From Bacteroidales bacterium (GTDB taxonomy: Bacteria > Bacteroidota > Bacteroidia > Bacteroidales > P3): DNA of 55,597 nt. Below the pieces are notes generated by a model, which saw only the letters and a list, made by a program, of their open reading frames with translations, was not told the DNA's origin and ran no database searches. The translations under genes were made by a program, and so were the position numbers. Location: assembly GCA_017633985.1 (NCBI GenBank), contig JAGBOF010000032.1, forward strand, positions 1 through 55,597, given 5' to 3'. Positions 15,140-34,500 of this stretch are shown here, piece after piece (within the stretch, counting starts at the first letter, position 1; each line of letters starts with the position of its first letter).

Positions 15140-15350
15140 CGATACAAATTGAGGAAGAATATATGTAAATAGAAAATAATATAAAGATATCAAGGAAATA
15201 TTGCGGAACTAAACGCACTTTTGTTCTTTAAAACCTAGACAACTTTAAAGAAACCATACAAAAGATCGGGTTGCAGTAACGATGCAGTATGTCATCGTGT
15301 ACTTTGTAGTTTGTATGGTGAAAAAAGGTAAGTCTAGGACCTTAAAGAGC
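15140..15350 (+). ncRNA. Recurrent structured RNA, copy 1
   Basis: Begins just after the promoter box at 15128. Stem A 15225-15231 / 15342-15348 (TCTTTAA / TTAAAGA); internal loop AA (15232-15233) against ACC (15339-15341); stem B CCTAGAC / GTCTAGG (15234-15240 / 15332-15338); then ACTTT; stem C ACCATACAAA / TTTGTATGGT (15253-15262 / 15310-15319); apical stem ACGATG / CATCGT (15279-15284 / 15293-15298). The same order with different stem sequences recurs in copies 2 and 3. No ORF. Ends 128 bases before a T9SS cargo gene. I do not recognise the family; it could be a trans-acting RNA or a long 5' leader. Confidence 0.75.
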
Positions 15351-15404
15351 AAATGATAAAAGTTCACGATATTTTTATATTCTGTCAAATAAAATTATTA
15401 ATCA

Positions 15405-15435
15405 GATGTAATCGAATAAAGTTAATTATTACATC
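15405..15435 (+). other. Hairpin between structured RNA copy 1 and the next gene
   Basis: Perfect 8-bp stem GATGTAAT / ATTACATC (15405-15412 / 15428-15435) with no T run, 43 bases before the start codon. It may be the 3' end of the RNA or part of the mRNA leader. Confidence 0.5.
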
Positions 15436-15477
15436 ACAAAACCGAGGGGCTTAATGGGATAACAAAGCAAAGCGATT

Positions 15478-16269
15478 ATGGTTAAATTAAACAAAGCCAT
15501 TAAACTTTTAACTATTGCTGTAATGATGTTGATTAGTGGTAATACCGGAGCACAAATCAGTGAACCTCAAGAATTTTTAGGAACCACTTTTATTAAATCT
15601 AATTATGAACAAGATGTTCTTGTGGCAAAACGTGACGGAGTACTTTATTTTTATAATAAAGATATGAAGCTTATAAAATCCACAACTATATATTCTTCTT
15701 TTTCGTCAAGTAACGATGATTATATAGAAGTGTATTGTATAGCAAAGAATGTTTTTACAAAAAGCAATAAGTACGAATTTGTAGCATACATTCGTAGTTG
15801 TGGAAATTTTAGAAAGGTTGGAATCTATAATGAGGACGGAGAATGTTTGTATTCATTCGGAGAAGGGACAGCGATCAATTCTGATGGAGAACCTTTCATA
15901 AGTTGTGGTAAATTGATCCTTCCTTTAGTAAAAGCATCTGTATATGATGGAGATTATTTTCAATCGGCAAACGATATTACTTATGTTTTTACACTACAAG
16001 GAGTTTTTAGTTCATCTCTTGACAATATTGTTCAAGGGCAAACTTCCGCAAAACTTTATCCTAATCCAGCAAAGCAATCCGTCACTGTGGAATATAATAT
16101 CCAAGGACAGATGCAACAGATGCGGATAACGGATATTAACGGACGTGTTGTTGCAAACTATTTGCTTGATCCGTCGCAAAAACAAGTTCAAATAGATACT
16201 TCCAATTATAAAAAGGGTGTTTATGTTTACAGTTACGGTAATACCTCGGGTAAATTCATAGTTCAATAG
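15478..16269 (+). CDS. Secreted protein with type IX secretion sorting domain
   Basis: 263 residues. Signal peptide to about residue 26 (ends NTGAQ). The middle resembles strand-rich repeats but I cannot assign a domain. Residues 192-263 are a type A T9SS C-terminal domain: KLYPNPAKQSVTVEY, MRITDINGRVV, then GVYVY and GKFIVQ at the end. Such proteins are exported by Sec and then by the PorLMN/Sov machine, often to the cell surface. This is good evidence that the genome codes a T9SS. Passenger function unknown. Confidence 0.88.
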   Translation: MVKLNKAIKLLTIAVMMLISGNTGAQISEPQEFLGTTFIKSNYEQDVLVAKRDGVLYFYNKDMKLIKSTTIYSSFSSSNDDYIEVYCIAKNVFTKSNKYEFVAYIRSCGNFRKVGIYNEDGECLYSFGEGTAINSDGEPFISCGKLILPLVKASVYDGDYFQSANDITYVFTLQGVFSSSLDNIVQGQTSAKLYPNPAKQSVTVEYNIQGQMQQMRITDINGRVVANYLLDPSQKQVQIDTSNYKKGVYVYSYGNTSGKFIVQ

Positions 16270-16314
16270 CAATGAATACAAATCAGCAGTAGAAATTAGT
16301 GAAGTTAAAAGTTG

Positions 16315-16350
16315 CAGAGACGTGATTTAGTTACGTCTCTGTTTGTATTT
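16315..16350 (+). terminator. Terminator of the T9SS cargo gene
   Basis: Perfect 9-bp stem CAGAGACGT / ACGTCTCTG (16315-16323 / 16333-16341) followed by TTTGTATTT. Confidence 0.85.
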
Positions 16351-16433
16351 ATGTAATGCAGAATACAAATAGACGGAATCTGTGCAACAAACAAATAGAA
16401 ACCTTGCTATAAGATTATATTGAAAATATATTG

Positions 16434-16441
16434 TATTTTTG
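16434..16441 (+). promoter_or_regulatory. Helicase promoter -7 box
   Basis: TATTTTTG followed by CACATTG, 34 bases before the helicase ATG at 16475. Confidence 0.65.
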
Positions 16442-16474
16442 CACATTGTAATTTCAGTATAGAAATCTTCATTT

Positions 16475-17887
16475 ATGCGTTACGGTTTTGCGGATATATT
16501 ATTAAAGCATATAGGGTTTGTGCCGACAAGTGACCAGAACAGATTGATAGGGTTGTTGGAAAAATTCGTATTTGACCCTTTAAGTACTGTATTTATCCTT
16601 AAAGGTTATGCAGGAACGGGAAAGACGACAATGATGAGCGCATTAATAAAATCGCTTCCCGCATTCGGAATAAAAAGTGTGCTGCTTGCTCCGACAGGCA
16701 GGGCTGCAAAGGTGTTGAGTCTTTATTCCGACAAAAACGCTTTCACAATCCACAAACATATCTACTTCACTCACAGGGACGACAACGCATTTACTTTCCG
16801 CTTAAAGGAAAATAAATACAAGGACACGATATTTATCGTTGATGAATCTTCAATGATTGGAATCGGAACCGCCAACGGTTTTATGGAACGCAATCTTTTG
16901 GACGACCTTATGGAATATGTCAGCCACGGAGAGCGCTGCAAACTGATTTTTATCGGAGATACCGCCCAACTTCCGCCTGTTAATGAGGTACTTTCGCCTG
17001 CTTTGGACAGCGATTATATGTCCCGTCATTACAATATCGCACCTGCCGAATACCAGCTCACGGAAGTTGTCCGCCAAGCGTTAGACAGCAACATTTTGAA
17101 GAATGCTTCCAATCTCCGTTACCGAATTGACAAAGAGAATTACGCATTGCCTTTATTTAAATTCCAATCTTCCGAAGATTTTAAAGCAATTTCGGCCGTG
17201 GATTTCGAAGATTATTTGCGTCAAGCCTACAATGAATACGGCGAAGACGAAGTTATCTGCGTCAGTCGCTCCAATAAAGCCGCCAATATCCTCAATAACC
17301 GCATCCGTTACACGATTTTGGACAAGGAGAACCAAATTGACAGCGGCGATAACTTAATGGCGGTGAAGAATAACTATTTTTGGCTGGACGATTATTCCAA
17401 ACAGGGCTTTATTGCTAACGGTGATATACTTAAAATCAAAAGAATTTTGGGCTATGAGGACAAATACGGCTACCATTTCGCAGATATTATTGCTTCGTTC
17501 AATGATTACGAAGACGAGGCGGACGTTGAGATGACCGTTTTGTTAGATACGCTTAATATAGAGAAGGCTTCGTTGGATATGTCGGGCGACGATTCGCTGT
17601 ATTACAAGATTTTTGACGAGTATTATAAAGATTGCGGAAACAAGGTGCAGGCGAAAAAGAACACATTGTCAGATAAATATTTCAATGCCGTACAAGTGAA
17701 GTTTGCCAACTGTCTTACATGCCATAAGGCGCAGGGCGGCGGTTGGAAGGCTGTGTTTGTGTTCCAAAACTACTTTACAGACGATATGCTTACCAAAGAT
17801 TATTTGCGTTGGTTATACACTGCCGTTACCCGAGCCAAAGAAAAACTGTTTCTTGTCAATTTCTCCGAAGATTTTTTCAAGAAATAA
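16475..17887 (+). CDS. RecD/Dda-like superfamily 1 DNA helicase
   Basis: 470 residues. Walker A GYAGTGKTT at 44-52, motif Ia LLAPTGRAAKVLS (70-82), DES Walker B at 123-125, motif III GDTAQLPP at 161-168, and C-terminal motifs TCHKAQGGGWKAVFV and YTAVTRAKEKLFLVNF. This is the short RecD-like helicase common in Bacteroidota, a 5'-3' ATP-driven unwinding enzyme by family. It has no RecB/RecC partner nearby. A decayed copy of its last ~90 bases sits at 20806-20898. Confidence 0.88.
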   Translation: MRYGFADILLKHIGFVPTSDQNRLIGLLEKFVFDPLSTVFILKGYAGTGKTTMMSALIKSLPAFGIKSVLLAPTGRAAKVLSLYSDKNAFTIHKHIYFTHRDDNAFTFRLKENKYKDTIFIVDESSMIGIGTANGFMERNLLDDLMEYVSHGERCKLIFIGDTAQLPPVNEVLSPALDSDYMSRHYNIAPAEYQLTEVVRQALDSNILKNASNLRYRIDKENYALPLFKFQSSEDFKAISAVDFEDYLRQAYNEYGEDEVICVSRSNKAANILNNRIRYTILDKENQIDSGDNLMAVKNNYFWLDDYSKQGFIANGDILKIKRILGYEDKYGYHFADIIASFNDYEDEADVEMTVLLDTLNIEKASLDMSGDDSLYYKIFDEYYKDCGNKVQAKKNTLSDKYFNAVQVKFANCLTCHKAQGGGWKAVFVFQNYFTDDMLTKDYLRWLYTAVTRAKEKLFLVNFSEDFFKK

Positions 17888-17954
17888 GGCGGCATAGCTG
17901 CGATTGATAATTGCTGAATTGTACATAAGCGTTGCCCCGATGCTTATCATTTTT

Positions 17955-18058
17955 GCCCCATCGCACGTTAATTTGAAAAAAAGGGTTTTTTCTTATCAAA
18001 AAAACAGTTTTTTTAGTACAAAAAAAGGGTTTTTTTCAGATTCTTTCCGCACGGGGCA
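17955..18058. repeat. Three-slot palindromic repeat element, copy 2
   Basis: Slots on the plus strand are GGG, CAG, GGG between A and T runs, spaced by CTTATC and AGTAC. Outer arms GCCCCATCGCACGTTAATTTG and CGCACGGGGC are degraded inverted repeats. Lies 70 bases after the helicase stop. Confidence 0.85.
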
Positions 18059-18236
18059 AAACCAAGAAACGGGAGGGTACAATTAGATTGCAAAACGGCA
18101 AAAATCATATCGGGTTTGATAGCCGTAGGATGAGAAGATGCGGCGGTATTTTGTAATAAACAAACCAAAAAATCCGTCTTTACGGCAATAATATTCAGAC
18201 TTAACAATATGTCATTACTATCTCAAAAAACTTTCG
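18059..18236. other. Gene-free spacer before structured RNA copy 3
   Basis: No gene, hairpin or promoter stands out until the TATTTTTG box at 18237. The flank just after the repeat element carries degenerate GC-rich units like those around copies 3 and 4. Confidence 0.4.
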
Positions 18237-18244
18237 TATTTTTG
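18237..18244 (+). promoter_or_regulatory. Promoter -7 box of structured RNA copy 3
   Basis: TATTTTTG followed by CAAGTG; the RNA structure begins within ten bases. Confidence 0.65.
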
Positions 18245-18249
18245 CAAGT

Positions 18250-18466
18250 GCTTATCGGCGGATAAGTGATAGCGGTCGTTTATAGGCTGTTATCTTGCTT
18301 GAAATATGGAAGCGTTATGCTTATTATAGCTTGTCATCAAAAGCGTGAGAAACTTTGAATAAACAAGATTAGCATGGTGGTTCTGTCATTGCCAGCCTTG
18401 GCGTGATTTCCATTAGGGTTATATCTTTTTATTCGGGTTATTATCATTCTCACGCACCTTGATGAG
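18250..18466 (+). ncRNA. Recurrent structured RNA, copy 3
   Basis: 5' hairpin CTTATC / GATAAG; hairpin AAGC-GTTAT-GCTT (18310-18322), the same as in copy 2; stem A TCATCAA / TTGATGA (18334-18340 / 18459-18465); loop AA (18341-18342) against ACC (18456-18458); stem B GCGTGAGAA / TTCTCACGC (18343-18351 / 18447-18455); ACTTT; stem C GAATAAA / TTTATTC (18357-18363 / 18428-18434); core TTGGCGTG (18399-18406) and ATTAG shared with copy 2. Stems differ in sequence but not in order from the other copies. The next gene starts 128 bases later. Confidence 0.75.
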
Positions 18467-18592
18467 GGATATAACAGAAAGTTATTAATATGTATTAGTG
18501 GTTTCACGCTTTCTTGTTAGTGATTAATTAAAAAAGGTGTGCAACAAGGGCGCACTTTCCTTAAGAAACCGCAAGGAAACAAATGTAAGACA

Positions 18593-19177
18593 ATGAAAAA
18601 ATTACGATTCTTGTCAGTTATTGCAGTGTTGATGTTCTGCAATTGTAACATTTTCGCACAAAAAGAACATCTTAAGTTTTCCGGTATTGAGATTGACGGA
18701 AGCATTACCCGGTTCCAATCCAAGCTTATATCAAAAGGGTATGTATCGTACACAGACTTGAACAGTAAATTGCCTGCCGGGTCCCGTGCTTTCAAAGGAA
18801 CATTTGTGAATAATAAAGTGCTTGCTTGTGTTTATTATGATGAAAGCAGTAAGAACGTGTACAAAGTAAAGGTTGTTGTAGAGGATTTATCAGAAGATAT
18901 GGCAAAACAAAAGTTAAACGAATTTAGAAAATTGTTTAACCAGAAATATGAGGCTTATTTTATTGAGGATAAAGATTCTTTTATTTTAGTACCAATGAGA
19001 GATGTCAATCTTTCAGATGATGTAGACAAATGGAAAAATTCTTTGGGAGAAATAGATGTCTATATAAGAAAAAATGAATCTTTGTATAATTATCCATATC
19101 ATTATAGTCTGCATGTAGATTACACAGACCAAATAAACTCGGAGAAACACGAAAATTCGGTTATAGAAGATTTGTAA
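18593..19177 (+). CDS. Small secreted protein of unknown function
   Basis: 194 residues from ATG 18593 (MKKLRFLSVIAVLMF). The signal peptide ends near FAQ. The mature part begins HLKFSGIEIDGSITRFQSKLISKG, a pattern I associate with a Bacteroidales-restricted family of small periplasmic proteins of unknown role. The frame is open 18 codons upstream but that part lacks a secretory start. Preceded by structured RNA copy 3 and a short hairpin region (18534-18560). Confidence 0.65.
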   Translation: MKKLRFLSVIAVLMFCNCNIFAQKEHLKFSGIEIDGSITRFQSKLISKGYVSYTDLNSKLPAGSRAFKGTFVNNKVLACVYYDESSKNVYKVKVVVEDLSEDMAKQKLNEFRKLFNQKYEAYFIEDKDSFILVPMRDVNLSDDVDKWKNSLGEIDVYIRKNESLYNYPYHYSLHVDYTDQINSEKHENSVIEDL

Positions 19178-19209
19178 AAGGTAATAGTTTTCTTTGTTTT
19201 ACGTATAGT

Positions 19210-20064
19210 ATGAACAGTGTAATGTATCTAATATTTGCAGCTTTAGTTGTAGTATTTGTTATCTTTGTAGCAGGAGGTAATAAGCGGAGATCAAACAAGA
19301 AGATTGACAAGCAGAAGCAACCGCATAATAAAGCAACAACATACAGCAATAACAACACTACGGAGAGTTATAACAATTCTTACGGTGATGCTGTGGGAAT
19401 TAAAGGTATGCAGGGCGAAGATAATATAAGGACAAAACTGTCAGCATTGCCGCAGGATTATGTTGTGTATAATGATGTCTATATTAAAGTTAATGAACGT
19501 TCGGTTCAGATTGACCATGTCGTGATTTCCGCTTACGGTATCTTTGTTATAGAGACCAAGAACTATACGGGTAATATTTACGGTACCGATGATGCCGAAT
19601 ATTGGAGTAAGTACATTCATAACAATGAGTATAAGTTCCGCAATCCTTTGAAGCAAAATTACTATCATCTGAAGTCTTTGCAGGAAATACTTGCTTTGCC
19701 GCGAAACTTATTCGTTCCGATAGTTGTTTTTGCGGATAAGGCAGATATAAAATGCGAAACACGGGAATTTGTTATATACGCCAAGCAATTAAAAAGCACA
19801 ATATACGGATTCAAAACCCCGATAATGACAACGGAGGCGGTAAATTACGCAATAAACAGACTGAATGCGTCCTTGATATTGGATAAAGACAGAGAGAAAC
19901 GGCATGCTAATTCAATTAACCAATATATAAAGGAAAAGAATGAACTGATCAATCAAGGTATATGCCCGAGATGTAAAGCAAAGTTAGTTGAAAGAAACGG
20001 GAAATACGGAAAGTTTTTAGGCTGTTCTAATTATCCGCTTTGTACATTTACAAAAGAATTATAA
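19210..20064 (+). CDS. NERD-domain membrane protein with C-terminal topoisomerase-type zinc ribbon
   Basis: 284 residues. An N-terminal membrane helix (about 4-22), a basic Asn/Lys linker, a NERD nuclease-related domain (about 65-180; QIDHVVISAYGIFVIETKNYTG contains the conserved D and ExK-like residues) and a four-Cys zinc ribbon at the end (CPRC...LGCSNYPLC). NERD plus this ribbon suggests a DNA- or RNA-handling enzyme tethered to the membrane. Function unproven for the family. Probably in one transcript with 20084-20728. Confidence 0.85.
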   Translation: MNSVMYLIFAALVVVFVIFVAGGNKRRSNKKIDKQKQPHNKATTYSNNNTTESYNNSYGDAVGIKGMQGEDNIRTKLSALPQDYVVYNDVYIKVNERSVQIDHVVISAYGIFVIETKNYTGNIYGTDDAEYWSKYIHNNEYKFRNPLKQNYYHLKSLQEILALPRNLFVPIVVFADKADIKCETREFVIYAKQLKSTIYGFKTPIMTTEAVNYAINRLNASLILDKDREKRHANSINQYIKEKNELINQGICPRCKAKLVERNGKYGKFLGCSNYPLCTFTKEL

Positions 20065-20083
20065 ACAAAAAAACATAAGAGCA

Positions 20084-20728
20084 ATGAAGAAAATAGTTTT
20101 ATTAGTTGCTGCAGCTTTAATGTTATCTGCGTGCAGCAAATCACCGGAAGAAAAAGCAAATGTCTTAATTAAAGAACATTTACAGAAAACTTTGTATCAC
20201 CCGGATAAATATGACCCTGCGGAGACGGTTATTGACAGTGCTTTTTCTCCTGCAGATGATCCTGAATTTCATCAGAAGCTTTTTGACGCATATAAGCTTT
20301 CTGTGCAAATCTCTGAAATAGAAGATCAAATTAAGAAAGCAAAGGCTACTATGTCAATTTATCAGAATAACCCATTCGGAGATGGATATATACGTAATCA
20401 GTATGATCAGGCAAAGGAAGAATATGAATCATTACTTGCGCAACAGGAGAAGTTGCAGGAAAAAGGCGCAAAGATGAAAGCAGAGTTTGATTCAATGGGT
20501 AAGAAATTCAAAAAAGAAGGCAAGAAATTTATAGGATTTAAGGCAAGTCACAAATTTCGTTGCCAAAATAACGCAGGGCAAACTCTTTTTGGCAATTACT
20601 ACTATCTTTTTGATAAAGACATAACACAAATTCTGGAATCATTGGACATTGACGGCGATGAATACAAGACTCTTCAGATGATGTTTGATCAAATTCATGA
20701 GATGGCAGAAAGCGAGGTAGAACAATAA
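20084..20728 (+). CDS. Lipoprotein with coiled coil, unknown function
   Basis: 214 residues. Lipobox LSAC (Cys17). Residues 20-60 (SPEEKANVLIKEHLQKTLYHPDKYDP) resemble a small family found in many Bacteroidales as lone lipoproteins. A heptad-rich stretch lies at about 75-150. Starts 20 bases after the NERD gene. Confidence 0.7.
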   Translation: MKKIVLLVAAALMLSACSKSPEEKANVLIKEHLQKTLYHPDKYDPAETVIDSAFSPADDPEFHQKLFDAYKLSVQISEIEDQIKKAKATMSIYQNNPFGDGYIRNQYDQAKEEYESLLAQQEKLQEKGAKMKAEFDSMGKKFKKEGKKFIGFKASHKFRCQNNAGQTLFGNYYYLFDKDITQILESLDIDGDEYKTLQMMFDQIHEMAESEVEQ

Positions 20729-20777
20729 GTTTCTATCTGCGATGGAATAGATGCATTGTATTTATTCCAAAAAATAG

Positions 20778-20824
20778 TAAAAGCCACAAGCAAAATAGTC
20801 ATTATAAAGATTATTTGCTTGTGG
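20778..20824 (+). terminator. Hairpin after the lipoprotein gene
   Basis: CCACAAGCAAA pairs with TTTGCTTGTGG across an AT-rich loop, followed by TTATAT. The right arm lies inside the helicase-derived fragment at 20806-20898. Confidence 0.6.
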
Positions 20825-20898
20825 TTATATCTTACTGCCGTATTGCCAAATGAAAGAAGATTCTTAAACCTTTCTCCGAAGAATTTTTCAAGAAATAA
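20806..20898 (+). pseudogene. Decayed copy of the 3' end of the RecD-like helicase gene
   Basis: Bases 20806-20898 align with 17798-17887: shared blocks AAAGATTATTTGC, GGTTATA, ACTGCCGT and TTTCTCCGAAGA with TTTTTCAAGAAATAA at the end, with small gaps. It is a fragment left by duplication or recombination; the small ORF read across it in another frame is not a gene. Confidence 0.75.
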
Positions 20899-20967
20899 AA
20901 AATCGCCGAAATCCGCAATAATTTTGCGACAATTTCCTTAATAAAAAATCGCCGAAATCCGCAATAA
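20894..20967 (+). repeat. Two 28-base direct repeats
   Basis: Bases 20894-20921 and 20940-20967 are the same (they contain TCGCCGAAATCCGC), separated by 18 bases. They directly follow the helicase fragment and precede the promoter at 21016. Confidence 0.8.
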
Positions 20968-21015
20968 ATTTACGCTTTTTCCCGCAATTTGTTTGGTAAG
21001 TTCAATAATTTCAAG

Positions 21016-21023
21016 TAATTTTG
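21016..21023 (+). promoter_or_regulatory. Promoter -7 box of the DUF4143 ATPase gene
   Basis: TAATTTTG followed by CAATCTG, 21 bases before the ATG at 21045. It rules out the upstream TTG at 21021 as the start. Confidence 0.65.
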
Positions 21024-21044
21024 CAATCTGAAAATGTCAAGAGT

Positions 21045-22313
21045 ATGGAAGAGCAAAATTATATATACAGAATAGGCGACAGATTGTTAGAAGAACATAT
21101 GGAATCCTCAGGTGCCGTGCTTATTGAGGGTGCTAAATGGTGCGGAAAGACAAGTACAGGCAAGCATTTGGCAAAAAGTATTCTTTATATGCAAGACCCT
21201 GACGAGTTTCAGGCAAATATGCGAATTGCGGAGTCAAAACCGTCATTGCTTTTGCGGGGAGAAAATCCCAGATTGATAGATGAATGGCAGATGGCACCTG
21301 TTCTTTGGGATGCAGTCAGATTTGAAGTGGATAAACGCGGCGGAAAATTCGGACAGTTTATACTTACGGGTTCTGCAGTCCCGAAAGACAACAAAACAAT
21401 GCACACGGGAACGGGCAGAATATCAAGGATGTTACTGCGACCTATGACTTTGTTTGAATCAAAAGAATCTAACGGCGATGTTTCTTTGAAATCATTGTTT
21501 GACGGTAACACCGAAATAGAATCTTTCAGCACCTTGACAATAGAAGATATAGCACACGTGATTTGCAGAGGTGGTTGGCCGGCAGCAGTTGTACAGAAGG
21601 CGAAAAATTATAAGGTTGCGGAAAATTATGTTGAGGCTGTAATCAATATGGATGTACATAGGGTGGACGGCGTTGAGAAAAATCCGCAACGGGTACGTAT
21701 GTTGATGAAATCATTGTCACGCAATATTTCAACCCTTGCCACATTAAAAACCATTCAAGAAGATATTCAAGCCAACGATATTGCTATTTCAGAAAACACT
21801 TTAAACTCTTATTTGAATGCATTGCGGAGAATTTTTGTTGTAGAGGACATTCCTGCGTGGCAACCCTCACTTCGCTCCAAGACTGCGATAAGAACTTCGG
21901 CTAAAAGGCAGTTTGTGGATCCTTCGATTGCAACTGCCGTTTTGAAGGCCAAACCTGACGGGCTTTTAAAGGACTTTGAATTGTTCGGATTCTTGTTTGA
22001 AAGCCTTTGCACGCGAGATATACGCGTTTATTCGCAGGCTAACGACGGCGAAGTCTTGCATTACAGGGACAAAAACGGACTTGAAAGCGACCTGATTATA
22101 AGATTGAATGACGGAAGATGGGCTGCGATAGAAGTAAAGATGGGAAATAAGCAAGTGGAGCAAGCATCCAAGAACCTAATTAAGCTGAAAAGCAAAGTGG
22201 ATACCGACAAAATCGGCGAGCCTTCATTCCTTATGGTGATAACTGCAGGACAGTATGCATACAAAGATAAAAACGGTGTATTGATTTGCCCGATAGGTTG
22301 CTTAAAAGATTAA
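21045..22313 (+). CDS. AAA_14/DUF4143 family ATPase
   Basis: 422 residues. Walker A GAKWCGKTS near residue 30, Walker B region LIDEWQ, sensor FILTGSAVP, then the DUF4143 domain whose end (YRDKNGLESDLIIRLNDG followed by AAIEVKMG) carries a D...ExK arrangement like PD-(D/E)XK nucleases. The family is common in mobile and variable regions of bacteria and archaea; cellular role unknown. Own promoter. Confidence 0.85.
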   Translation: MEEQNYIYRIGDRLLEEHMESSGAVLIEGAKWCGKTSTGKHLAKSILYMQDPDEFQANMRIAESKPSLLLRGENPRLIDEWQMAPVLWDAVRFEVDKRGGKFGQFILTGSAVPKDNKTMHTGTGRISRMLLRPMTLFESKESNGDVSLKSLFDGNTEIESFSTLTIEDIAHVICRGGWPAAVVQKAKNYKVAENYVEAVINMDVHRVDGVEKNPQRVRMLMKSLSRNISTLATLKTIQEDIQANDIAISENTLNSYLNALRRIFVVEDIPAWQPSLRSKTAIRTSAKRQFVDPSIATAVLKAKPDGLLKDFELFGFLFESLCTRDIRVYSQANDGEVLHYRDKNGLESDLIIRLNDGRWAAIEVKMGNKQVEQASKNLIKLKSKVDTDKIGEPSFLMVITAGQYAYKDKNGVLICPIGCLKD

Positions 22314-22352
22314 GAGATTACAGTAAGTATATAATGTAATATTTTCCATCTC

Positions 22353-23276
22353 CTATTTATTGATATACTTCTTAATTATAGGAACTAAAAGTAAGGTTCT
22401 TTTGTCTGCACCTTGTTTGCCGAGATGGTAAGGAGTATTATAGTTCAGACTGTCTGGAAAAGCAAATACTTCAGACGGACATTCTTGCTTAAGATTATAT
22501 TTCTTGTAGGTTTCTTCTACTCGCTTGACATTTTCTTGTAGAGTTGCAAAAGATGTTTTTGCAATTACAGGTGGCACTATTATAACTTTGGCACCTTTTT
22601 CTTCTGTTTGTTTAATTTTACTGCTTAAATAGTTAAAATATTTTTCGGAGAAATCATCCTCATTAAACGGTTTATAGTGCCTAAAGTCGGTTTTGGGTTT
22701 ATCCCAATGAGCAACAATATCTCCGTTTTTGTTAAATGACGAAAGGGCATAAGCACTCCATTTAGTATTTTTGTGCAATAGTATATGTTTGTAATAATCC
22801 TTCTTGAGAGTTAGTACAGAAGGGATATTACTGAATACGTTTTTCCATTGTAATATATTAAAACTCTTTCCGAGGTAAGGATATAGGAAAAATAATTGTG
22901 ATAATGCTTCTTCTCCGTCCCAAGAACCGTAGGGCTGATGATATTCAGGAGCAAGAACTACTATATCTCCTTGTTTGGCATACTTACAAAATTCATCCAT
23001 CATAGCTTTCATGCCGATACCTGCATGAATGGAGGTGTTTATTACCTGCATTTTTAAACTGTCTTCCAGTAAAAGTGAGTTTATACCGAAAGTGACATTA
23101 CTGCCTCCTATAAATATTACGGCATTATCTCTGTCAGGATTTTTTACTGCATCAACTTTCTTTTCCCAAGCAAGAAAATATGCATCGGGATTACCCTTTA
23201 AAACGAATAAAATTACACTTGATACGGCAATTATCACTATTGCCAATATTGAGAACTTAATTAGAAACTTTTTCAT
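22353..23276 (-). CDS. SGNH/AlgX-like membrane-anchored partner of an MBOAT acyltransferase
   Basis: 307 residues from ATG 23276; the codon before it is GTG and is not preferred. One N-terminal membrane anchor, then FIGGSNVTFGINS, the Gly-Ser-Asn block of the SGNH-like proteins that travel with MBOAT genes. It follows the MBOAT gene by 12 bases. By analogy with DltD, PatB and AlgX it would pass or remove acyl groups on an extracytoplasmic glycan. The catalytic Asp/His pair was not confirmed. Confidence 0.75.
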   Translation of the reverse strand: MKKFLIKFSILAIVIIAVSSVILFVLKGNPDAYFLAWEKKVDAVKNPDRDNAVIFIGGSNVTFGINSLLLEDSLKMQVINTSIHAGIGMKAMMDEFCKYAKQGDIVVLAPEYHQPYGSWDGEEALSQLFFLYPYLGKSFNILQWKNVFSNIPSVLTLKKDYYKHILLHKNTKWSAYALSSFNKNGDIVAHWDKPKTDFRHYKPFNEDDFSEKYFNYLSSKIKQTEEKGAKVIIVPPVIAKTSFATLQENVKRVEETYKKYNLKQECPSEVFAFPDSLNYNTPYHLGKQGADKRTLLLVPIIKKYINK

Positions 23277-23288
23277 CACAATAATTAT

Positions 23289-24707: not shown

Positions 24708-24737
24708 GGCACTTTGAGTTTTTTAATTATACAAAAA

Positions 24738-25307: not shown

Positions 25308-25329
25308 CAGTCTAAAATTTCATGAATCT

Positions 25330-26460: not shown

Positions 26461-26479
26461 GTAAATTGACGGACATATT

Positions 26480-28204: not shown

Positions 28205-28260
28205 GATGCGGTTTTACGGTCGCCTTTCGGCATCTTTATGACGCCTTAAGCCGTATGAGT

Positions 28261-28369
28261 GCCGCCCCGTGGCGTTTTAATTCAGAAAAAACCCTTTTTT
28301 TGACCCGAAAAAACAGTTTTTTTGCATCAAAAAAAGGGTTTTTTCTGAATTAAAACGCCACGGGGCGGC
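28261..28369. repeat. Three-slot palindromic repeat element, copy 3 (perfect 43-bp arms)
   Basis: The left arm 28261-28303 and right arm 28327-28369 are exact reverse complements over all 43 bases. The 23-base centre (28304-28326) contains the palindrome AAAAAACAGTTTTTTT. Slots on the plus strand are CCC, CAG, GGG. Arms begin GCCGCCCCGTGGCG. It is the best-preserved copy. Confidence 0.95.
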
Positions 28370-28483
28370 AGTAACACGCTAAAGGGCAAAAACCAAACGC
28401 ATAAAAGCATCGTTTTGATAACTCAAAACTGCGGTATTTCACAAAACAAACGCCGTATTCGGTAACAAATGATTTTATTTTCG

Positions 28484-28491
28484 TAACTTTG
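28484..28491 (+). promoter_or_regulatory. der promoter -7 box
   Basis: TAACTTTG followed by CAAAAA, 26 bases before the der ATG. Confidence 0.65.
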
Positions 28492-28517
28492 CAAAAATTA
28501 TTTAACTTTTTACGGCA

Positions 28518-29831
28518 ATGAGCAATATAGTAGCAATAGTAGGACGTCCGAACGTAGGCAAAAGTACGCTTTTCAACCGTTTGACAGGCACAAAAAGTGC
28601 AATTATTGACCCAACCAGCGGCGTAACACGCGATCGCCATTACGGCAAAAGCAACTGGAACGGCAAAGAATTCAGCGTTATTGACACGGGCGGCTATATG
28701 ATAGGCGGAGATGATGCTTTTGAAAAAGAGATTTGCCAACAGGTGCGCATAGCTATCGATGAGGCTGACGCGATACTGTTTCTTGTTGACGCCAAAGAGG
28801 GCATCACTTCCATGGATGAAGACGTTGCCGACATATTGCGCCGCAGCAATAAAAAGACTTTGCTTGTTGTCAATAAAGTTGATACATTCGCCAAATCCAT
28901 GACCGTATCCGAGTTCTACTCTTTGGGTTTGGGTGAATTATATGAGATATCCGCAGCCAACGGAAGCGGTACGGGTGAATTATTAGATGAATTGGTTAAG
29001 GATTTTTCCGATAAGGAAACATTCAAAGACGAAGATGCCGATTTGCCGCATCTTGCCGTTGTGGGAAGACCCAATGTGGGTAAATCTTCGTTCATAAACA
29101 TGATAACAAATCAGGACCGTAACATCGTCAAAGACCTTGCGGGTACGACAAGAGACAGTATCAATACGCGTTATAACCTGTTCGGTTTTGATTTTGTGAT
29201 TGTTGATACGGCGGGATTGCGCAAAAAGAACGCCGTTAAGGAGAATATAGAATTTTATTCGGTAATGCGTGCGATACGTTCGCTTGAAATGTCCGACGTT
29301 TGCATACTTGTGGTTGATGCTTCGGTAGGTTTTGATGCCCAAGACCTGAATATTCTTTCTCTTTGCGAAAGAAACAACAAGGGAGTGGTGATTTGCGTCA
29401 ATAAATGGGACAAAGTGGAGAAGGAAACCAACACTATGAAACATTTTGAGGAAGAAATACGCAACAAGACTGCACCTTTTACCGATATTCCTATTATTTT
29501 CACATCCGTAATCAACAAACAAAGGATTTTTAAGGTACTTGAAACCGCCAGGGATGTGTATGAAAACCGCCGAAGGAAGATTCCTACCAGCAGACTTAAC
29601 GAAGATATACTTCCGATAGTAAAAGAGCAAAATCCGCCTGCAGAATACAAAGGCAAAAGGGTTAAAATAAAATATATTACGCAGTTAAAAACTCCTTATC
29701 CGCAGTTTGTGTTTTATTGCAATCTGCCTCAATACGTCAAACAGGATTATATACGTTTTTGTGAGAACAAACTGCGTGAGTATTACGACTTCCACGGCGT
29801 TCCCGTAACGGTTTACTTCCGCGAGAAATAG
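28518..29831 (+). CDS. der: Ribosome assembly GTPase Der (EngA)
   Basis: 437 residues. Two tandem G domains: GRPNVGKST (9-17) with DTGG and NKVD, and a second GRPNVGKSS near 182 with DTAG and NKWD, followed by the KH-like C-terminal domain (about 355-437). Essential in 50S subunit maturation. Normal length. Confidence 0.97.
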   Translation: MSNIVAIVGRPNVGKSTLFNRLTGTKSAIIDPTSGVTRDRHYGKSNWNGKEFSVIDTGGYMIGGDDAFEKEICQQVRIAIDEADAILFLVDAKEGITSMDEDVADILRRSNKKTLLVVNKVDTFAKSMTVSEFYSLGLGELYEISAANGSGTGELLDELVKDFSDKETFKDEDADLPHLAVVGRPNVGKSSFINMITNQDRNIVKDLAGTTRDSINTRYNLFGFDFVIVDTAGLRKKNAVKENIEFYSVMRAIRSLEMSDVCILVVDASVGFDAQDLNILSLCERNNKGVVICVNKWDKVEKETNTMKHFEEEIRNKTAPFTDIPIIFTSVINKQRIFKVLETARDVYENRRRKIPTSRLNEDILPIVKEQNPPAEYKGKRVKIKYITQLKTPYPQFVFYCNLPQYVKQDYIRFCENKLREYYDFHGVPVTVYFREK

Positions 29832-29904
29832 GGTTTTTCAGATATTCTGCGGTACTTACTGTTTAGAAAACCGTATTGCAGGACATAAGACAGCGGTTTA
29901 TGAA

Positions 29905-29944
29905 ATTAAAGAGGCGTTTTATTTTATTAAAACGCCTCTTTAAT
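29905..29944. terminator. Bidirectional terminator between der and folB
   Basis: A perfect 16-bp stem (29905-29920 / 29929-29944) containing GAGGCGTTTT / AAAACGCCTC, with an 8-base loop; T-rich in both directions. Confidence 0.85.
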
Positions 29945-29965
29945 TCTTTAAAATGTTGTTTATGA

Positions 29966-30316
29966 TTATCCTTTCAATAACACGCTTACCTTATCCATCT
30001 GTCCGCCTACGGGAGGATTGAGTTTAGATATTTTAAGCGTGATGTCGGTGATATTTTTGAAGTTTTCTTTGACAGCATTGATGATCCGCCTGCCCACATG
30101 CTCCAATATATGCGACGGTATTGCCATCTGCTGTTTGATAACAGCGTAAACCTGTGAGTAATCAACCGTGTCAAGGACGTTATCCGTGATTTCGGCTTTT
30201 TGTGTATCGGTTTCAAACCAAATACTTACACAAAAATCCGTGCCTATCACCTGTTCCTCTTCGAAACATCCGTGATAGGCATAGAATTTCATATTTTCAA
30301 TTGAAATTTGTGACAT
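29966..30316 (-). CDS. folB: Dihydroneopterin aldolase
   Basis: 116 residues. Makes 6-hydroxymethyl-dihydropterin in folate synthesis. Signature residues: IENMKFYAYHGCFEEEQVIGTDF (catalytic region with E and Y near the start), DTVDYSQVY and ILEHVGRRI, ending SKLNPPVGGQMDKVSVLL. Nine bases after pheS. Confidence 0.93.
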   Translation of the reverse strand: MSQISIENMKFYAYHGCFEEEQVIGTDFCVSIWFETDTQKAEITDNVLDTVDYSQVYAVIKQQMAIPSHILEHVGRRIINAVKENFKNITDITLKISKLNPPVGGQMDKVSVLLKG

Positions 30317-30325
30317 TTTGAATTG

Positions 30326-31360
30326 TTATAAAGTCGCAGCAAATTGGTTTAAAAAGCGTACGTCGTTTTCAAAGTATTGTCTTAAATCCTTAACGTCGTA
30401 CTTAAGCATGGCAATACGTTCAATGCCCATACCGAAAGCGAATCCCGAATAAACATCAGGGTCAATGCCGCTGGCTTTAAGTACATTAGGGTCTACCATT
30501 CCGCAACCCAATATCTCCAACCAACCTGTGTGTTTACAGATATTGCAACCCTGTCCGCCGCAAATAGTACAGGATATATCCATTTCCGCACTCGGTTCGG
30601 TAAACGGGAAGTATGACGGACGCAAACGTATCTGCGTTTCGCTGCCGAACATTTCTTTTACAAAATAAAGCAATGTCTGTTTAAGATCTGCGAAACTTAC
30701 ACCTTTATCTATATATAATCCTTCAACCTGATGGAATATACAATGGGCGCGTGCCGATATGGCTTCATTGCGGAACACTCTTCCAGGAGCAATGATGCGG
30801 ATAGGCGGTTGGTTATGCTCCATCGTGCGCACCTGTACGGATGAGGTATGGGTACGGAGCAATACGTTGTTGCCGTCTTCGCGGTTCTCTACAAAGAATG
30901 TGTCTTGCATATCCCTGGCAGGGTGTTCAGGCGGGAAGTTAAGTGCAGAAAATACATGCCAGTCATCTTCTATTTCAGGACCTTCCGCAACCGTATAGCC
31001 AAGACGGGAGAAAATATCAATTATTTCCTTTCTTACCGTTGTCAAAGGATGGATACTGCCTAAGGAAAGCAAATCGGCAGGCCGTGTAAGGTCTTCTTTA
31101 GGTTTTAATTCCTCTTGTTTCTGGGCTATGGCTTCTTTAAGATTCTCTATTTTGTCCTGAACGGCACTTTTTAGTTCATTTAAAAGAATTCCCGCTTCTT
31201 TTTTCTGTTCGTTAGGCACCTCTTTGAATTTGGCAAACAGGTCATTCATCAAACCTTTCTTGCCAAGATATTCTATTCTTGCCTTTTCTATTTCTTCAAG
31301 TGTGGAGGCTGACAGAGTTTTTACTTCCTCCAGTTTTTGTTTTATAATTTCCTGTAACAT
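30326..31360 (-). CDS. pheS: Phenylalanyl-tRNA synthetase alpha chain
   Basis: 344 residues from ATG 31360 (MLQEIIKQKLEEV); a 12-residue upstream extension overlaps the previous gene and is not used. Class II catalytic core: HPLTTVRKEIIDIF, DTFFVE, LLRTHTSSVQVR, FRNEAISARAHCIFHQVEG and GFAFGMGIERIAMLKY. The CTICGGQGCNICKHTGW cysteine cluster is common in this chain. The N-terminal coiled coil binds tRNA. pheT is not adjacent. Confidence 0.96.
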   Translation of the reverse strand: MLQEIIKQKLEEVKTLSASTLEEIEKARIEYLGKKGLMNDLFAKFKEVPNEQKKEAGILLNELKSAVQDKIENLKEAIAQKQEELKPKEDLTRPADLLSLGSIHPLTTVRKEIIDIFSRLGYTVAEGPEIEDDWHVFSALNFPPEHPARDMQDTFFVENREDGNNVLLRTHTSSVQVRTMEHNQPPIRIIAPGRVFRNEAISARAHCIFHQVEGLYIDKGVSFADLKQTLLYFVKEMFGSETQIRLRPSYFPFTEPSAEMDISCTICGGQGCNICKHTGWLEILGCGMVDPNVLKASGIDPDVYSGFAFGMGIERIAMLKYDVKDLRQYFENDVRFLNQFAATL

Positions 31361-31388
31361 GATTATGTGGTTAAAGAAATTTTCCTCT

Positions 31389-32090
31389 TTATTCAATTAT
31401 TTTGACAGTCATACGTATGTCTTCCGTAGGTCTGTCATTGCGGTCGGTATTGACTGCTGCAATTTTATCAATCACATCCAAGCCTTCAACAACCTGTCCG
31501 AAAACGGTATAATCCCCGTCAAGGAAAGGTACACCGCCATCTTTAGTATAGGTTTGGCGTTGCAATGAAGTAAATGTCTTACCCATACGCATTTCAAGGT
31601 TATCAAGTTCCGCAGGAGTGTAGACTTTGCCTTGGCAGATATAGAACTGACAAGCCGAAGACGCTTTCTCAGGGTTCATATCCCTTGCTGCTGCCAATGC
31701 GCCTTTCTTATGAATGATGTTTCCGCTGATTTCGGCAGGAACTTTGTAGCCTAGATCGCCGTTACCGAGAATTTGACCCTTTTGAGCGGTCTTGCTGTTA
31801 GGATCTCCTCCCTGAATCATAAATCCTTGTATAACTCTGTGGAAAAGGGTTGAGTCCAAAACGCCTTCGTTCACTATTCTGATAAAATTGTCTCTGTGCT
31901 GCGGAGTTTCGTTATACAAAACGGCTTTCATATCTCCGTAAGGTGTTGAAATTAATACCATAGTCTGTTTTTCTTTTTGCGTGTTAGTTTCCGTATTTTC
32001 AGATGTTTGTGCGGTTTTATTTGACTTACATCCCGTAAAAACCATGCTTAAAACGGCAAATAAAGTTAAAATTTTTTTTGTGCGTCTCAT
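31389..32090 (-). CDS. Cyclophilin-type peptidyl-prolyl isomerase lipoprotein
   Basis: 233 residues. Lipobox FTGC (Cys21), a Thr/Asn/Lys-rich tether, then a cyclophilin domain from about 45: DNFIRIVNEG, FHRVIQGFMIQGGDP, GALAAARDMNPEKASSACQFYIC, DGDYTVFGQVVEGLDVIDKI. It catalyses proline isomerisation in the periplasm during protein folding. 28 bases before pheS. Confidence 0.92.
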   Translation of the reverse strand: MRRTKKILTLFAVLSMVFTGCKSNKTAQTSENTETNTQKEKQTMVLISTPYGDMKAVLYNETPQHRDNFIRIVNEGVLDSTLFHRVIQGFMIQGGDPNSKTAQKGQILGNGDLGYKVPAEISGNIIHKKGALAAARDMNPEKASSACQFYICQGKVYTPAELDNLEMRMGKTFTSLQRQTYTKDGGVPFLDGDYTVFGQVVEGLDVIDKIAAVNTDRNDRPTEDIRMTVKIIE

Positions 32091-32174
32091 TTTTTTTCTT
32101 ACATTTGCAAACTGAAATAATCAGTTTAGATTTAACAAAAATTTTAAAATGCAATATTACAAAAAAAAATTGTC

Positions 32175-32528
32175 ATGAAGAAGAATATTTGGAAAACTTT
32201 TGCACTAATTTTATTTTTTGCAACCCTAATGCCTTGTTTCAGTTCATGCAGTGATGATTTGGACGGATGCGGATTAACAGTTATCGTGATGGATGCCATA
32301 ACCGGAGAAAGAGTTGCCGATGCGGCAATTCACGTATCGCAAGGTTCGGGAACAATATACAGAGACGGTAAAACAAATCATGACGGCGAGGCAAAATTTA
32401 TGTTTGACCATGAGGCAATATTCAATATTAATGCTTCAATAGGGGAAGCCCCTAACGTGAAAAACGGAAGTTCTACCGTAAGATTGAAATTCGGGGAAGT
32501 TATAACGAAAGAAGTTTTGGTACAATAA
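32175..32528 (+). CDS. Small lipoprotein with an Ig-like carboxypeptidase-regulatory fold
   Basis: 117 residues. Lipobox FSSC (Cys25), an acidic DDLDGC segment, then a beta domain LTVIVMDAITGERVADAAIHVS, DGKTNHDGEAKF, typical of the CarboxypepD_reg/transthyretin-like fold. Role unknown. Convergent with recX, 14 bases apart. Confidence 0.75.
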   Translation: MKKNIWKTFALILFFATLMPCFSSCSDDLDGCGLTVIVMDAITGERVADAAIHVSQGSGTIYRDGKTNHDGEAKFMFDHEAIFNINASIGEAPNVKNGSSTVRLKFGEVITKEVLVQ

Positions 32529-32542
32529 AGAAATACGGACAT

Positions 32543-33016
32543 TTAAAGCCCGTATTCTTTAAACAAATCTTCGATTAATTCGGTTTCAAAGCCGTGTGAA
32601 GTTAAAAAATACTGTAAACGGTATTTCCTTTGATAATTATCTTCCACTTTGAGGGAAGATAATTTTTTATTGAATAAGTGTTCCAAAACCTGTTTGTATT
32701 CTTCTTCGTTTATTGCGGCGAAAGATTTATTTATATACTTAAGCGAAATGCCTTTTGACATTAACATACGTTTTATTTTAATCCTTCCCCAACGGCTTTG
32801 CCGTATTTTACTGCGTGTATATATGTCTGCAAAACGCTGTTCGTTGATATAATCTTCTTCAATCAACCGTCCGACTATTTTTTCCGATGTCTTATAGTCA
32901 AGACCTTTCTTTATAAGTTTATCCTTTACATCTTTTGCGGAATTTTCCTGCAGACTGCAATATTTTTTTGCATATTCCAGTCCTTGTTCAAATGTATTCA
33001 GATTTTTTTGCTTCAT
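32543..33016 (-). CDS. recX: RecX regulator of RecA
   Basis: 157 residues from ATG 33016 (MKQKNLNTFEQGLEYAKKY). Three-helix repeats with the family pattern RFADIYTRSKIRQSRWGRIKIKRML. Restrains RecA filaments. recA is not in the window. Confidence 0.88.
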   Translation of the reverse strand: MKQKNLNTFEQGLEYAKKYCSLQENSAKDVKDKLIKKGLDYKTSEKIVGRLIEEDYINEQRFADIYTRSKIRQSRWGRIKIKRMLMSKGISLKYINKSFAAINEEEYKQVLEHLFNKKLSSLKVEDNYQRKYRLQYFLTSHGFETELIEDLFKEYGL

Positions 33017-33083
33017 ATAAAAGTAAAATTTTTGCAAAGATAAATATTTTTTATAAAAAACAAGTTGTTAAACAAATATTTAA

Positions 33084-33091
33084 TATCTTTG
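33084..33091 (+). promoter_or_regulatory. Promoter -7 box of the serpin-like gene; leader is absent or nearly so
   Basis: TATCTTTG ends seven bases before the ATG at 33098. With transcription normally starting about seven bases after this box, the mRNA is leaderless or close to it. Confidence 0.6.
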
Positions 33092-33097
33092 CAAAAT

Positions 33098-34135
33098 ATG
33101 AAAAAACTTTCAAAATTATTAATTATCCTGCTGTTGTTACCGACGGTATTATTGGTTTGCTGTAATAAAAAAGAAAACAGCCTTTACGGTATTTCAATAT
33201 CGCCTAACACCATGATGGGAACGCCTGCCGAGATGTTTTCTTTGCAACAAATCAAAATGTTTCAGGCTGCCAATAATCTGACATTCATTCTTATTGAAAC
33301 GTTGTCGAAAGACAGCACGGTTAATAACTTTGCCATTGCACCGATGTACATGATTAATAATTTACTGACGGATACTACTATAGACAAGTGGACAAAGGCG
33401 TATTCCGAATATTACGGCATGTCGGTGCTTTCGCATTCTGCGGCGTTGAATGCAGTGAATTCTTTTTTGAAAACGGTTAATGATATTGATTCATCGCTGA
33501 ATATTGAAAGCGAAGCGGGGTTTGCGGACATGAAGAGCATGAATATTGTCCAGAGATTGCACATTAAACTGATGTATCCTGATTCCGCTCCGAACGATAT
33601 AGATAATATTTTTACAACTATTGATAATAAAAAACCGCGTCTGGATTTTATGACCGTAAGCGATAATATCAGGGCATTGATAACGGACCGTGAACAGGTA
33701 ACCGAGCTTGTTCTGGGTAACGGTAATTATATGCTTATGTTGATAAGACCGTTGAATCAGTCAATAAGAGAATATGCTGCGGATTTTACGGAAGAAAAAT
33801 ATTTGCAATTCATTAACGGCATGCAGGAAAGAAAGATTAATGTTTCTTTGCCGCTGTTTTCTTTGCCGGATACTGTTTATAACCTGCCTTTGCCGTCATA
33901 TAACGGTGAAGATACCGTAATAAATTTCCCAGTTACATTGAATATAATACCCGAATTGACCGTTCGGGCGGCTACGGCTGCCGAATTATCGGACAAAACG
34001 GCAACAGAAATCAACAATAATATATTACAGACCAACAGTTCGGCACCTATAAAATATAATTCACCGTTTTTGTTTATTATAAGGGGCAAAAACTCAAATC
34101 TTATCATGTTTGCCGGGCTGTATGCAATGCCTTAA
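33098..34135 (+). CDS. Serpin-like lipoprotein, degenerate
   Basis: 346 residues from ATG 33098. Lipobox LVCC (Cys20 or 21). The layout follows serpins: NLTFILIETLSKDSTVNNFAIAPMYMINNLL for the first helices (serpin N-F-S-P block with A for S), INVSLPLFSL for the v-x-LP-x-F block, and SPFLFIIRGKNSNLIMFAGLYAMP for the final P-F-L-F-x-I strand. The hinge of the reactive loop is not the Ala/Gly/Thr-rich form of inhibitory serpins. It could be a non-inhibitory or decayed serpin anchored in the outer membrane. Confidence 0.7.
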   Translation: MKKLSKLLIILLLLPTVLLVCCNKKENSLYGISISPNTMMGTPAEMFSLQQIKMFQAANNLTFILIETLSKDSTVNNFAIAPMYMINNLLTDTTIDKWTKAYSEYYGMSVLSHSAALNAVNSFLKTVNDIDSSLNIESEAGFADMKSMNIVQRLHIKLMYPDSAPNDIDNIFTTIDNKKPRLDFMTVSDNIRALITDREQVTELVLGNGNYMLMLIRPLNQSIREYAADFTEEKYLQFINGMQERKINVSLPLFSLPDTVYNLPLPSYNGEDTVINFPVTLNIIPELTVRAATAAELSDKTATEINNNILQTNSSAPIKYNSPFLFIIRGKNSNLIMFAGLYAMP

Positions 34136-34163
34136 AAACCATCATTATACAAAAGGTGAAAAT

Positions 34164-34213
34164 AATCTGCGTGATTATTTTACTGAAACGGCGTTTTATT
34201 TTATTAAAACGCC
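34164..34213 (+). terminator. Terminator/repeat after the serpin-like gene
   Basis: GGCGTTTT / AAAACGCC (34190-34197 / 34206-34213), followed by a T-rich tail. The 27 bases at 34164-34190 occur again without change at 54334-54360. Confidence 0.75.
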
Positions 34214-34293
34214 TTATTATTTTTGCGGGACGGCGTTTTGAAATTTTATTGTAATTCAATAATAAAATATCTTGTCATTTCGCAAAACTTTTG

Positions 34294-34301
34294 TACTTTT
34301 G
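34294..34301 (+). promoter_or_regulatory. Promoter -7 box of structured RNA copy 2
   Basis: TACTTTTG in the context CGCAAAACTTTTG-TACTTTTGCA, close to the promoter in the 81-bp repeats. Confidence 0.65.
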
Positions 34302-34304
34302 CAC

Positions 34305-34500
34305 AAGTTAATAAGGGATATTATCCCTATGGATTTGACAAAGAAGAAGCGTTATGCTTATAATGTTGCAATAGAAAACCTGGAAAACTTTCTGATGCCA
34401 ACGACATTTAGATATAAGGATATAGCTGGTCTTATGCTTTGGCGTGGACTGCTATTAGATATCTAAATGTTACAGGTAATTTCCAGGACCTTCTATTGCG
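34305..34500 (+). ncRNA. Recurrent structured RNA, copy 2
   Basis: 5' hairpin GGGAT / ATCCC (34315-34319 / 34323-34327); hairpin AAGC-GTTAT-GCTT (34347-34359); stem A GCAATAGAA / TTCTATTGC (34368-34376 / 34491-34499); loop AA (34377-34378) against ACC (34488-34490); stem B CCTGGAAA / TTTCCAGG (34379-34386 / 34480-34487); ACTTT; inner stem ACATTTAGATAT / ATATCTAAATGT (34404-34415 / 34459-34470); core TTGGCGTG (34439-34446) and ATTAG. A 45-codon ORF inside it (from 34329) is taken as chance. Confidence 0.75.

What the first reader, a model, noticed from the sequence alone, without database searches (positions are those of the whole stretch)
15140..34500. A recurrent structured RNA with three covarying copies (15140-15350, 18250-18466, 34305-34500)
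Each copy follows its own TAnnTTTG promoter and folds into the same nest: outer stem A (7-9 bp), an internal loop always AA on the 5' side and ACC on the 3' side, stem B (7-9 bp), then ACTTT, an inner stem of 7-12 bp and an apical stem. Stem A is TCTTTAA, TCATCAA or GCAATAGAA, yet the opposite strand changes to match each time; B and C covary the same way. Copies 2 and 3 also share the hairpin AAGC-GTTAT-GCTT, the core TTGGCGTG and ATTAG. Downstream genes are unrelated (T9SS cargo, small secreted protein, XRE factor), which favours an independent ncRNA family over a single-pathway riboswitch. I do not recognise it among tmRNA, RNase P, SRP, 6S or common riboswitches.
Basis: partly seen in the sequence, partly recalled or inferred. 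Interest (0 to 1): 0.93.

Follow-up and report, generated by a model that had tools for sequence, protein, structure and literature searches.

The report
Portable multi-pseudoknot leader RNA family
The three sequences belong to a large, apparently undescribed family of folded RNAs that bacteria of the Bacteroidota place, with their own promoter, just in front of many unrelated genes, where they probably act as a shared switch for expressing the gene.

Summary
All three copies are homologues; this genome has 22, and relatives occur across Bacteroidales and more thinly elsewhere in Bacteroidota. No Rfam 15 family matches. Stems P1, A and B covary strongly (293 double-changed cells; 0 of 500 shuffles reach it). 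Against a free-standing ncRNA: a TANNTTTG promoter box sits about 54 nt before the first hairpin (92 of 105), and a same-strand ORF follows in 104 of 107 copies, its start codon a median 83.5 nt after stem A'. The proteins are unrelated (104 in 74 clusters). RNAs at least 95% identical precede unrelated genes in unrelated surroundings (7 of 9 pairs, one only partly testable), so the module is shuffled. One strand (GCGUG) can pair locally, or with a downstream strand followed by a U-tract (51 of 76; shuffled 2.5). I read it as a cis-acting attenuator with a pseudoknot terminator. The RNA family is near certain, cis action likely, switching inferred, the signal unknown.

The parts
15128..15135 (+). 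copy 1: -7 promoter box TACTTTTG
15201..15361 (+). copy 1: RNA core (P1-like hairpin 15202-15217, A 15224-15231/15342-15349, AA/ACC loop, B 15234-15242/15330-15338)
   Evidence: model match 63.7 bits; helix coordinates
15294..15370 (+). copy 1: PK1, strand ATCGTG (15294-15299) with CACGAT (15365-15370), then ATTTTTATATT
   Evidence: sequence
15478..16269 (+). gene led by copy 1: 263 aa, T9SS C-terminal sorting domain
   Evidence: Pfam PF18962, E 5.2e-12
18237..18244 (+). copy 2: -7 promoter box TATTTTTG
18310..18477 (+). copy 2: RNA core (P1 18310-18322, A 18334-18340/18459-18465, B 18343-18352/18446-18455)
   Evidence: model match 97.9 bits; sequence
18400..18509 (+). copy 2: PK1, GGCGTGA (18400-18406) with TCACGC (18504-18509), then TTTCTTGTT
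18593..19177 (+). gene led by copy 2: 194 aa, signal-peptide-like start, no Pfam family
34294..34301 (+). copy 3: -7 promoter box TACTTTTG
34347..34510 (+). copy 3: RNA core (P1 34347-34359, A 34369-34376/34491-34498, AA 34377-34378/ACC 34488-34490, B 34379-34387/34479-34487)
   Evidence: model match 119.7 bits
34441..34524 (+). copy 3: PK1, GGCGTGG (34441-34447) with CCACGT (34519-34524)
34514..34557 (+). copy 3: helix E, CAGTTCC (34514-34520) with GGAACTG (34551-34557)
   Evidence: sequence; helix covaries in the 37-copy alignment, which does not include this copy
34581..34784 (+). gene led by copy 3: 67 aa, Cro/C1-type HTH
   Evidence: Pfam PF13443, E 7.7e-08

Best explanation
A new family of structured 5' leader RNAs. 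SHOWN by comparison: each copy has its own -7 box about 54 nt before hairpin P1; the core holds P1, stem A, an AA/ACC internal loop, and stems B, C and D, knotted by four interactions: PK2 (just 5' of A with just inside C), PK3 (after D' with after A'), PK1 (strand k1, GCGUG, in the D arm with a strand some 15-40 nt after A'), and E, which pairs into the loop of hairpin F near the start codon. INFERRED: it acts in cis as a gene-independent expression switch. k1 can pair locally (hairpin D2) or with the downstream strand that runs into a U-tract (PK1). D2 would let polymerase pass; PK1 would work as a pseudoknot-type intrinsic terminator and release an RNA of roughly 230-270 nt. In read-through transcripts E/F folds just ahead of the start codon and may tune translation. 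The signal (small molecule, protein or RNA) is unknown. Promoter plus RNA behaves as a portable module found before unrelated genes, in different genera and on plasmids.
For: Covariation: 57 distinct copies, P1/A/B 93.9% paired against 67.8 shuffled, 293 double-changed cells against 67.0; alignment made without structure, ten helices, 90.3 against 80.0%, 226 against 79.6 double-changed cells, slid partners 37-46%. Position: promoter box in 92 of 105, against 9, 4 and 3 of 103 further upstream; start codon spacing. U-tract after the PK1 strand in 51 of 76, shuffled mean 2.5, maximum 7. k1 has a local partner in 67 of 76 and a downstream partner in 76 of 76. In distant L256 the strands before and after k1 are the same six letters, followed by a long T run. 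Gene-independence: 74 clusters in 104 proteins; no Pfam or NCBIfam family in more than 7 of 86.
Against: No transcript or termination data. D2 has no covariation in the 37-copy alignment. Swap tests: D2 6 of 76 and PK1 9 of 76 copies in the top 5%, near the 3.8 expected; in the 17 copies with divergent k1, D2 6 and PK1 3. In the wider-window test E reaches only 4 of 76. 25 of 76 copies lack a clear U-tract. 4 of 10 distant homologues have no tightly placed start codon. Unrelated downstream genes give no hint of a ligand.
Confidence: 0.55

Rival explanations
1. Trans-acting ncRNA: transcription normally ends at the U-tract and the RNA works elsewhere in the cell; the next gene is reached by read-through or merely shares the place.
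For: Own promoter box, U-tract after PK1, high structural complexity, unrelated neighbours, four distant copies without a close start codon.
Against: Same-strand ORF with a near-fixed start-codon distance, not seen in three control positions; the E/F helices beyond the U-tract covary.
Confidence: 0.2
2. Translation element: a folded leader that recruits ribosomes or protects the mRNA, constitutive rather than regulated, in organisms that use Shine-Dalgarno pairing little (recalled).
For: Near-fixed distance to the start codon for any gene; a knotted element (E/F) just ahead of it; gene-independence.
Against: U-tract directly after PK1 and the double use of k1 are not expected of a constitutive element.
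Confidence: 0.15
3. DNA-level element: a recombination or transposition site that folds as single-stranded DNA, with covariation kept at the DNA level.
For: Near-identical cores at unrelated places; different RNA-gene units at the same site in the window genome and G008; almost no G-U pairs in stem B.
Against: Promoter box at a fixed place; frequent G-U pairs in PK3, D and E; start-codon spacing; no recombinase among the commonest downstream families listed (first 25 shown).
Confidence: 0.08

Closest known systems
Riboswitches and other transcription attenuators (mode of action)
   Same: structured leader ahead of an ORF; alternative pairing of one strand; helix followed by a U-tract
   Different: downstream genes share no pathway (74 clusters in 104 proteins); the terminator helix would be a long-range pseudoknot; no ligand known
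FopS/GibS multicopy sRNAs of Bacteroides (PMC11697453, passages seen)
   Same: many paralogous copies per genome in Bacteroidales
   Different: no Rfam FopS, GibS or BTnc match on these RNAs (one search finds FopS elsewhere in L110); FopS described there as sRNAs, these as leaders
Bacteroidales-1, Bacteroides-1, Flavo-1, 6S-flavo motifs (table in PMC2864571, passages seen)
   Same: structured RNA motifs of the same phylum
   Different: none of these families matched in the Rfam scans
omega/HEARO RNAs and IS110 bridge RNAs (recalled)
   Same: structured RNA directly upstream of an ORF, linked to mobility
   Different: the following ORF differs almost every time and no nuclease or recombinase family dominates

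Membership tests
Any Rfam 15 family | match to one of 4227 covariance models | tested here: not met
   no match on the RNAs in the window, eight Bacteroidales loci or ten distant loci
Riboswitch | conserved structured leader in cis upstream of an ORF | tested here: met
Riboswitch | downstream genes share a pathway that hints at a ligand | tested here: not met
   74 clusters in 104 proteins; no family in more than 7 of 86
Riboswitch | specific ligand binding | not testable with these tools
   needs in-line probing or binding assays
Intrinsic-terminator attenuator | G+C-rich helix followed by a U-tract | tested here: met
   U-tract after the PK1 strand in 51 of 76, shuffled 2.5; the helix is long-range, not a simple hairpin
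Intrinsic-terminator attenuator | competing antiterminator pairing | tested here: inconclusive
   local D2 partner in 67 of 76, but no covariation in 37 copies and limited swap support
Intrinsic-terminator attenuator | measured termination and regulated read-through | not testable with these tools
   no transcript data
omega/HEARO RNA, IS110 bridge RNA | RNA adjacent to its nuclease or recombinase gene | tested here: not met
   no such family among the 25 commonest listed for 86 downstream proteins; rarer ones not listed
Integron attC site | cassette array with an integron integrase nearby | not tested
   copies lie on many contigs; integrases were not searched for
FopS/GibS sRNA | match to RF04319 or RF04182 | tested here: not met
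   matches only elsewhere in L110, not on the RNA

The most novel reading that the evidence does not exclude
A portable RNA switch: a promoter plus four-pseudoknot leader that moves between loci, plasmids and genera as its own unit, puts whatever gene lies downstream under one common signal, and uses a pseudoknot as its transcription terminator; a phylum-wide regulon defined by an RNA instead of a DNA-binding protein.
Probability: 0.3. Interest if true: 0.94.

Novelty: new variant of a known kind. Interest (0 to 1): 0.86.

Why it matters
It may be one of the commonest unexplained leader RNAs of gut bacteria: 143 of 392 sampled Bacteroidales genomes by a strict, capped search and 22 copies in this genome. 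It precedes surface and secreted proteins, small DNA-binding proteins and, on plasmid pBUN1, a beta-lactamase. If it is a switch, one signal would control a large, fast-changing set of accessory genes, and its presence before unrelated genes shows regulation travelling separately from the genes regulated. The central prediction, k1 choosing between D2 and PK1, can be tested directly by compensatory mutation.

Tried and rejected
A 17-letter sequence pattern with up to 3 mismatches is not enriched in the genome over its reversed control (508 and 464 against 600 and 577), so structure models were used. The locus scan read only the window (the loci were in another file); loci were scanned. RNAalifold on the model alignment found P1, A and B only. 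Known RNA families: no match; the miRNA-like hits near 28.3 kb are below their gathering scores and off the RNAs. A shared mobilisation context: in L169 the upstream gene has a Mob_Pre domain, in L138 and L144 the upstream ORFs have no Pfam match, and the nearest upstream ORFs of the other copies look different (by eye, not by family search). Phage link: 0 stretches of viral contigs with the pattern, one unverified phage record. E. coli: no match with the pBUN1 leader. Recent mass amplification: a 187-nt core reached at most 88% identity in 393 sampled genomes, two candidates scored per genome. Literature: eight searches of the held library listed no paper that I recognised as describing it. 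I saw listings, and passages found by term in PMC11109978, PMC7366714, PMC10989005, PMC8040213, PMC2864571, PMC11697453 and PMC9723704; no paper was read whole. PMC8040213 reports 3161 candidate RNAs whose supplement could not be opened here; its HMP2_1881 (108 bp, Bacteroidetes, near radical SAM genes, expressed) could be a piece of this RNA. PMC11697453 mentions a second paralogous sRNA family (BTnc020 and others) that I could not compare. The 2017 list of 224 candidate RNAs (recalled) is not held.
Full report
CHECKING THE OBSERVATION. The three copies were read directly. Each folds better than its shuffles (z -4.34, -5.34, -6.02). A scan of both strands of the window for stem A, AA, stem B ... 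B', ACC, A' returns only these three with at least 15 bp. The window has no Rfam match at gathering thresholds, and no match on the RNAs at E up to 10 in 15.0-35.0 kb.

FINDING RELATIVES. A DNA search with copy 3 in 61 related genomes gave a 78% full-length homologue in G008, a further copy in the own genome (contig 35) and shorter matches (49 of 61 genomes at E up to 1, many at chance level). Reading 20 places showed the same A-AA-B...B'-ACC-A' plan with different stems in 12 of the first set of loci printed. A model from eight copies with P1, A and B only matched 14 of 14 genomes of the genus at E up to 0.1, 22 places in the own genome. With the larger model R2, built on sequences that include them, all 22 reach E 4e-10 or better in a 567 kb search. 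R2 matched 143 of 392 Bacteroidales genomes at E up to 1e-4 with seven candidates scored per genome, and 17 of 296 genomes drawn from the phylum, one of them the own genome. A pattern scan of named genome contigs gave 108 stretches; among the 80 fetched, R2 matched 78, and the two without a match are the records titled Pasteurellaceae and Euryarchaeota. The titles include cultured Bacteroides, Phocaeicola, Prevotella, Xylanibacter and Butyricimonas.

STRUCTURE. On 57 distinct model-aligned copies P1, A and B pair in 93.9% of cells (shuffled 67.8) with 293 double-changed cells (shuffled 67.0), 0 of 500 shuffles; that alignment leans towards the model. A MAFFT alignment of 37 copies made without structure was scored against ten helices, P1, PK2, A, B, C, D, PK1, PK3, E and F, drawn on copy L169: 90.3% of cells paired against 80.0, 226 double-changed cells against 79.6, 0 of 500 for both; further pair types 92 against 82.9, 1 of 500; partners slid by 1-3 columns pair in 37-46%. 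A partner-swap test on 76 non-redundant copies (3.8 expected in the top 5%) gave PK2 21, C 33, PK1 12, PK3 9 and E 4, so E is not supported in that wide-window form. The AA/ACC loop sits one pair further out in one subtype. Ten distant homologues keep the plan with other stems (by eye).

WHERE IT SITS. TANNTTTG lies 30-120 nt upstream of P1 in 92 of 105 copies, median 54 among those, against 9, 4 and 3 of 103 in the next three windows. In 104 of 107 copies an ATG-started ORF of at least 45 aa follows within 330 nt on the same strand, median 83.5 nt after stem A', 78 of 104 within 66-115; the three without are L050, L056 and L068, the last with only 141 nt available. Among copies with 500 nt available the figure is 76 of 104, against 5 of 103 on the opposite strand upstream, 15 of 78 at 700 nt further and 13 of 103 from 600 nt before. 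The 104 proteins form 74 blastp clusters, the largest of 10; of 86 scanned, the commonest Pfam families are the T9SS sorting domain (7) and HTH_26 (6). Seven plasmid records have a similar stretch: on pBUN1 it lies directly ahead of blaMUN-1, on a Parabacteroides plasmid ahead of a DUF4433 gene. PLSDB tables hold no RNA genes, so missing annotation there says nothing.

MOBILITY. Of 9 pairs of RNAs at least 95% identical, 7 share neither a similar downstream protein nor similar upstream DNA; at 85% or more, 105 of 109. For one of the seven (L043/L047) L043 has only 97 nt upstream, so its upstream side could not be tested; three of the seven are the triple L149, L119, L169. Aligned, that triple matches closely from P1 to the PK1 strand, less closely back to the -7 box, and is unrelated outside. 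At one site the window has copy 1 with its T9SS gene, while G008 has, after the same upstream neighbourhood (93% and 85% identical, ending at window 15140), a copy-3-type RNA with its HTH gene (77% to window 34279-34773). Homologous recombination or gene conversion between copies would explain this; I did not search for a dedicated enzyme.

MECHANISM. After the PK1 3' strand the sequence is T-rich: at least 7 T in 9 within 14 nt in 51 of 76 copies, shuffled mean 2.5 and maximum 7; in the own genome 17 of 21. Strand k1 has a possible partner just upstream (D2, 67 of 76) and one downstream (PK1, 76 of 76). In L256 the strands before and after k1 are the same six letters and the second is followed by a long T run. 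The simplest reading is a choice between a local hairpin that lets transcription go on and a pseudoknot that ends it, upstream of a second knotted element (E/F) near the start codon. Shown: pairings, U-tract, position. Inferred: termination, switching, signal. Against it: D2 does not covary in the 37-copy alignment; swap support for D2 and PK1 over all copies is close to chance (6 and 9 of 76) and clearer for D2 only among 17 divergent copies (6, with PK1 3); a third of copies lack a clear U-tract; four of ten distant copies have no tight start codon.

COMPARISON AND NOVELTY. It works like an attenuating leader, but the usual mark of a riboswitch, a shared pathway downstream, was tested and not met. 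Rfam scans gave no family on the RNAs. Eight searches of the held library listed nothing that I recognised as a description; one large candidate list (PMC8040213) could not be opened and may hold a fragment. I therefore rate it a new variant of a known kind, with the portable, gene-independent switch as the bold reading.

Noticed in passing
window 15411-15467 and L092 near 3542 (own genome, contig 30): Copy 1 and another own-genome copy share a second conserved stretch between the RNA and the start codon, around CCGAGGGGCTTnATGGGATAACAAAG; both lead similar secreted proteins. It may be a second RNA element.
   Followed up: no
L067, L148, L149, L161: A motif GTTGyrCCCGACAC lies between the RNA and the gene in four copies.
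   Followed up: no
L157, L181, L184: A different 3' part (ACGCTTGAACCGA...) follows the core, and the next ORF is further away; perhaps a third subtype.
   Followed up: no
window 13158-13237 and 15061-15140: An 80-nt terminator-plus-promoter-like stretch is repeated and flanks a block with a nucleotidyltransferase gene (PF18765); the two copies look about 90% alike by eye, and each matches G008.
   Followed up: partly
L216 (plasmid pBUN1) 3001-3261: The RNA lies directly ahead of a beta-lactamase gene and behind mobV; described only.
   Followed up: partly
alignment A6, stem B: Stem B changes almost only by double substitution, with 3 G-U cells in about 510, while PK3, D and E have many G-U pairs. 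Unexplained.
   Followed up: no
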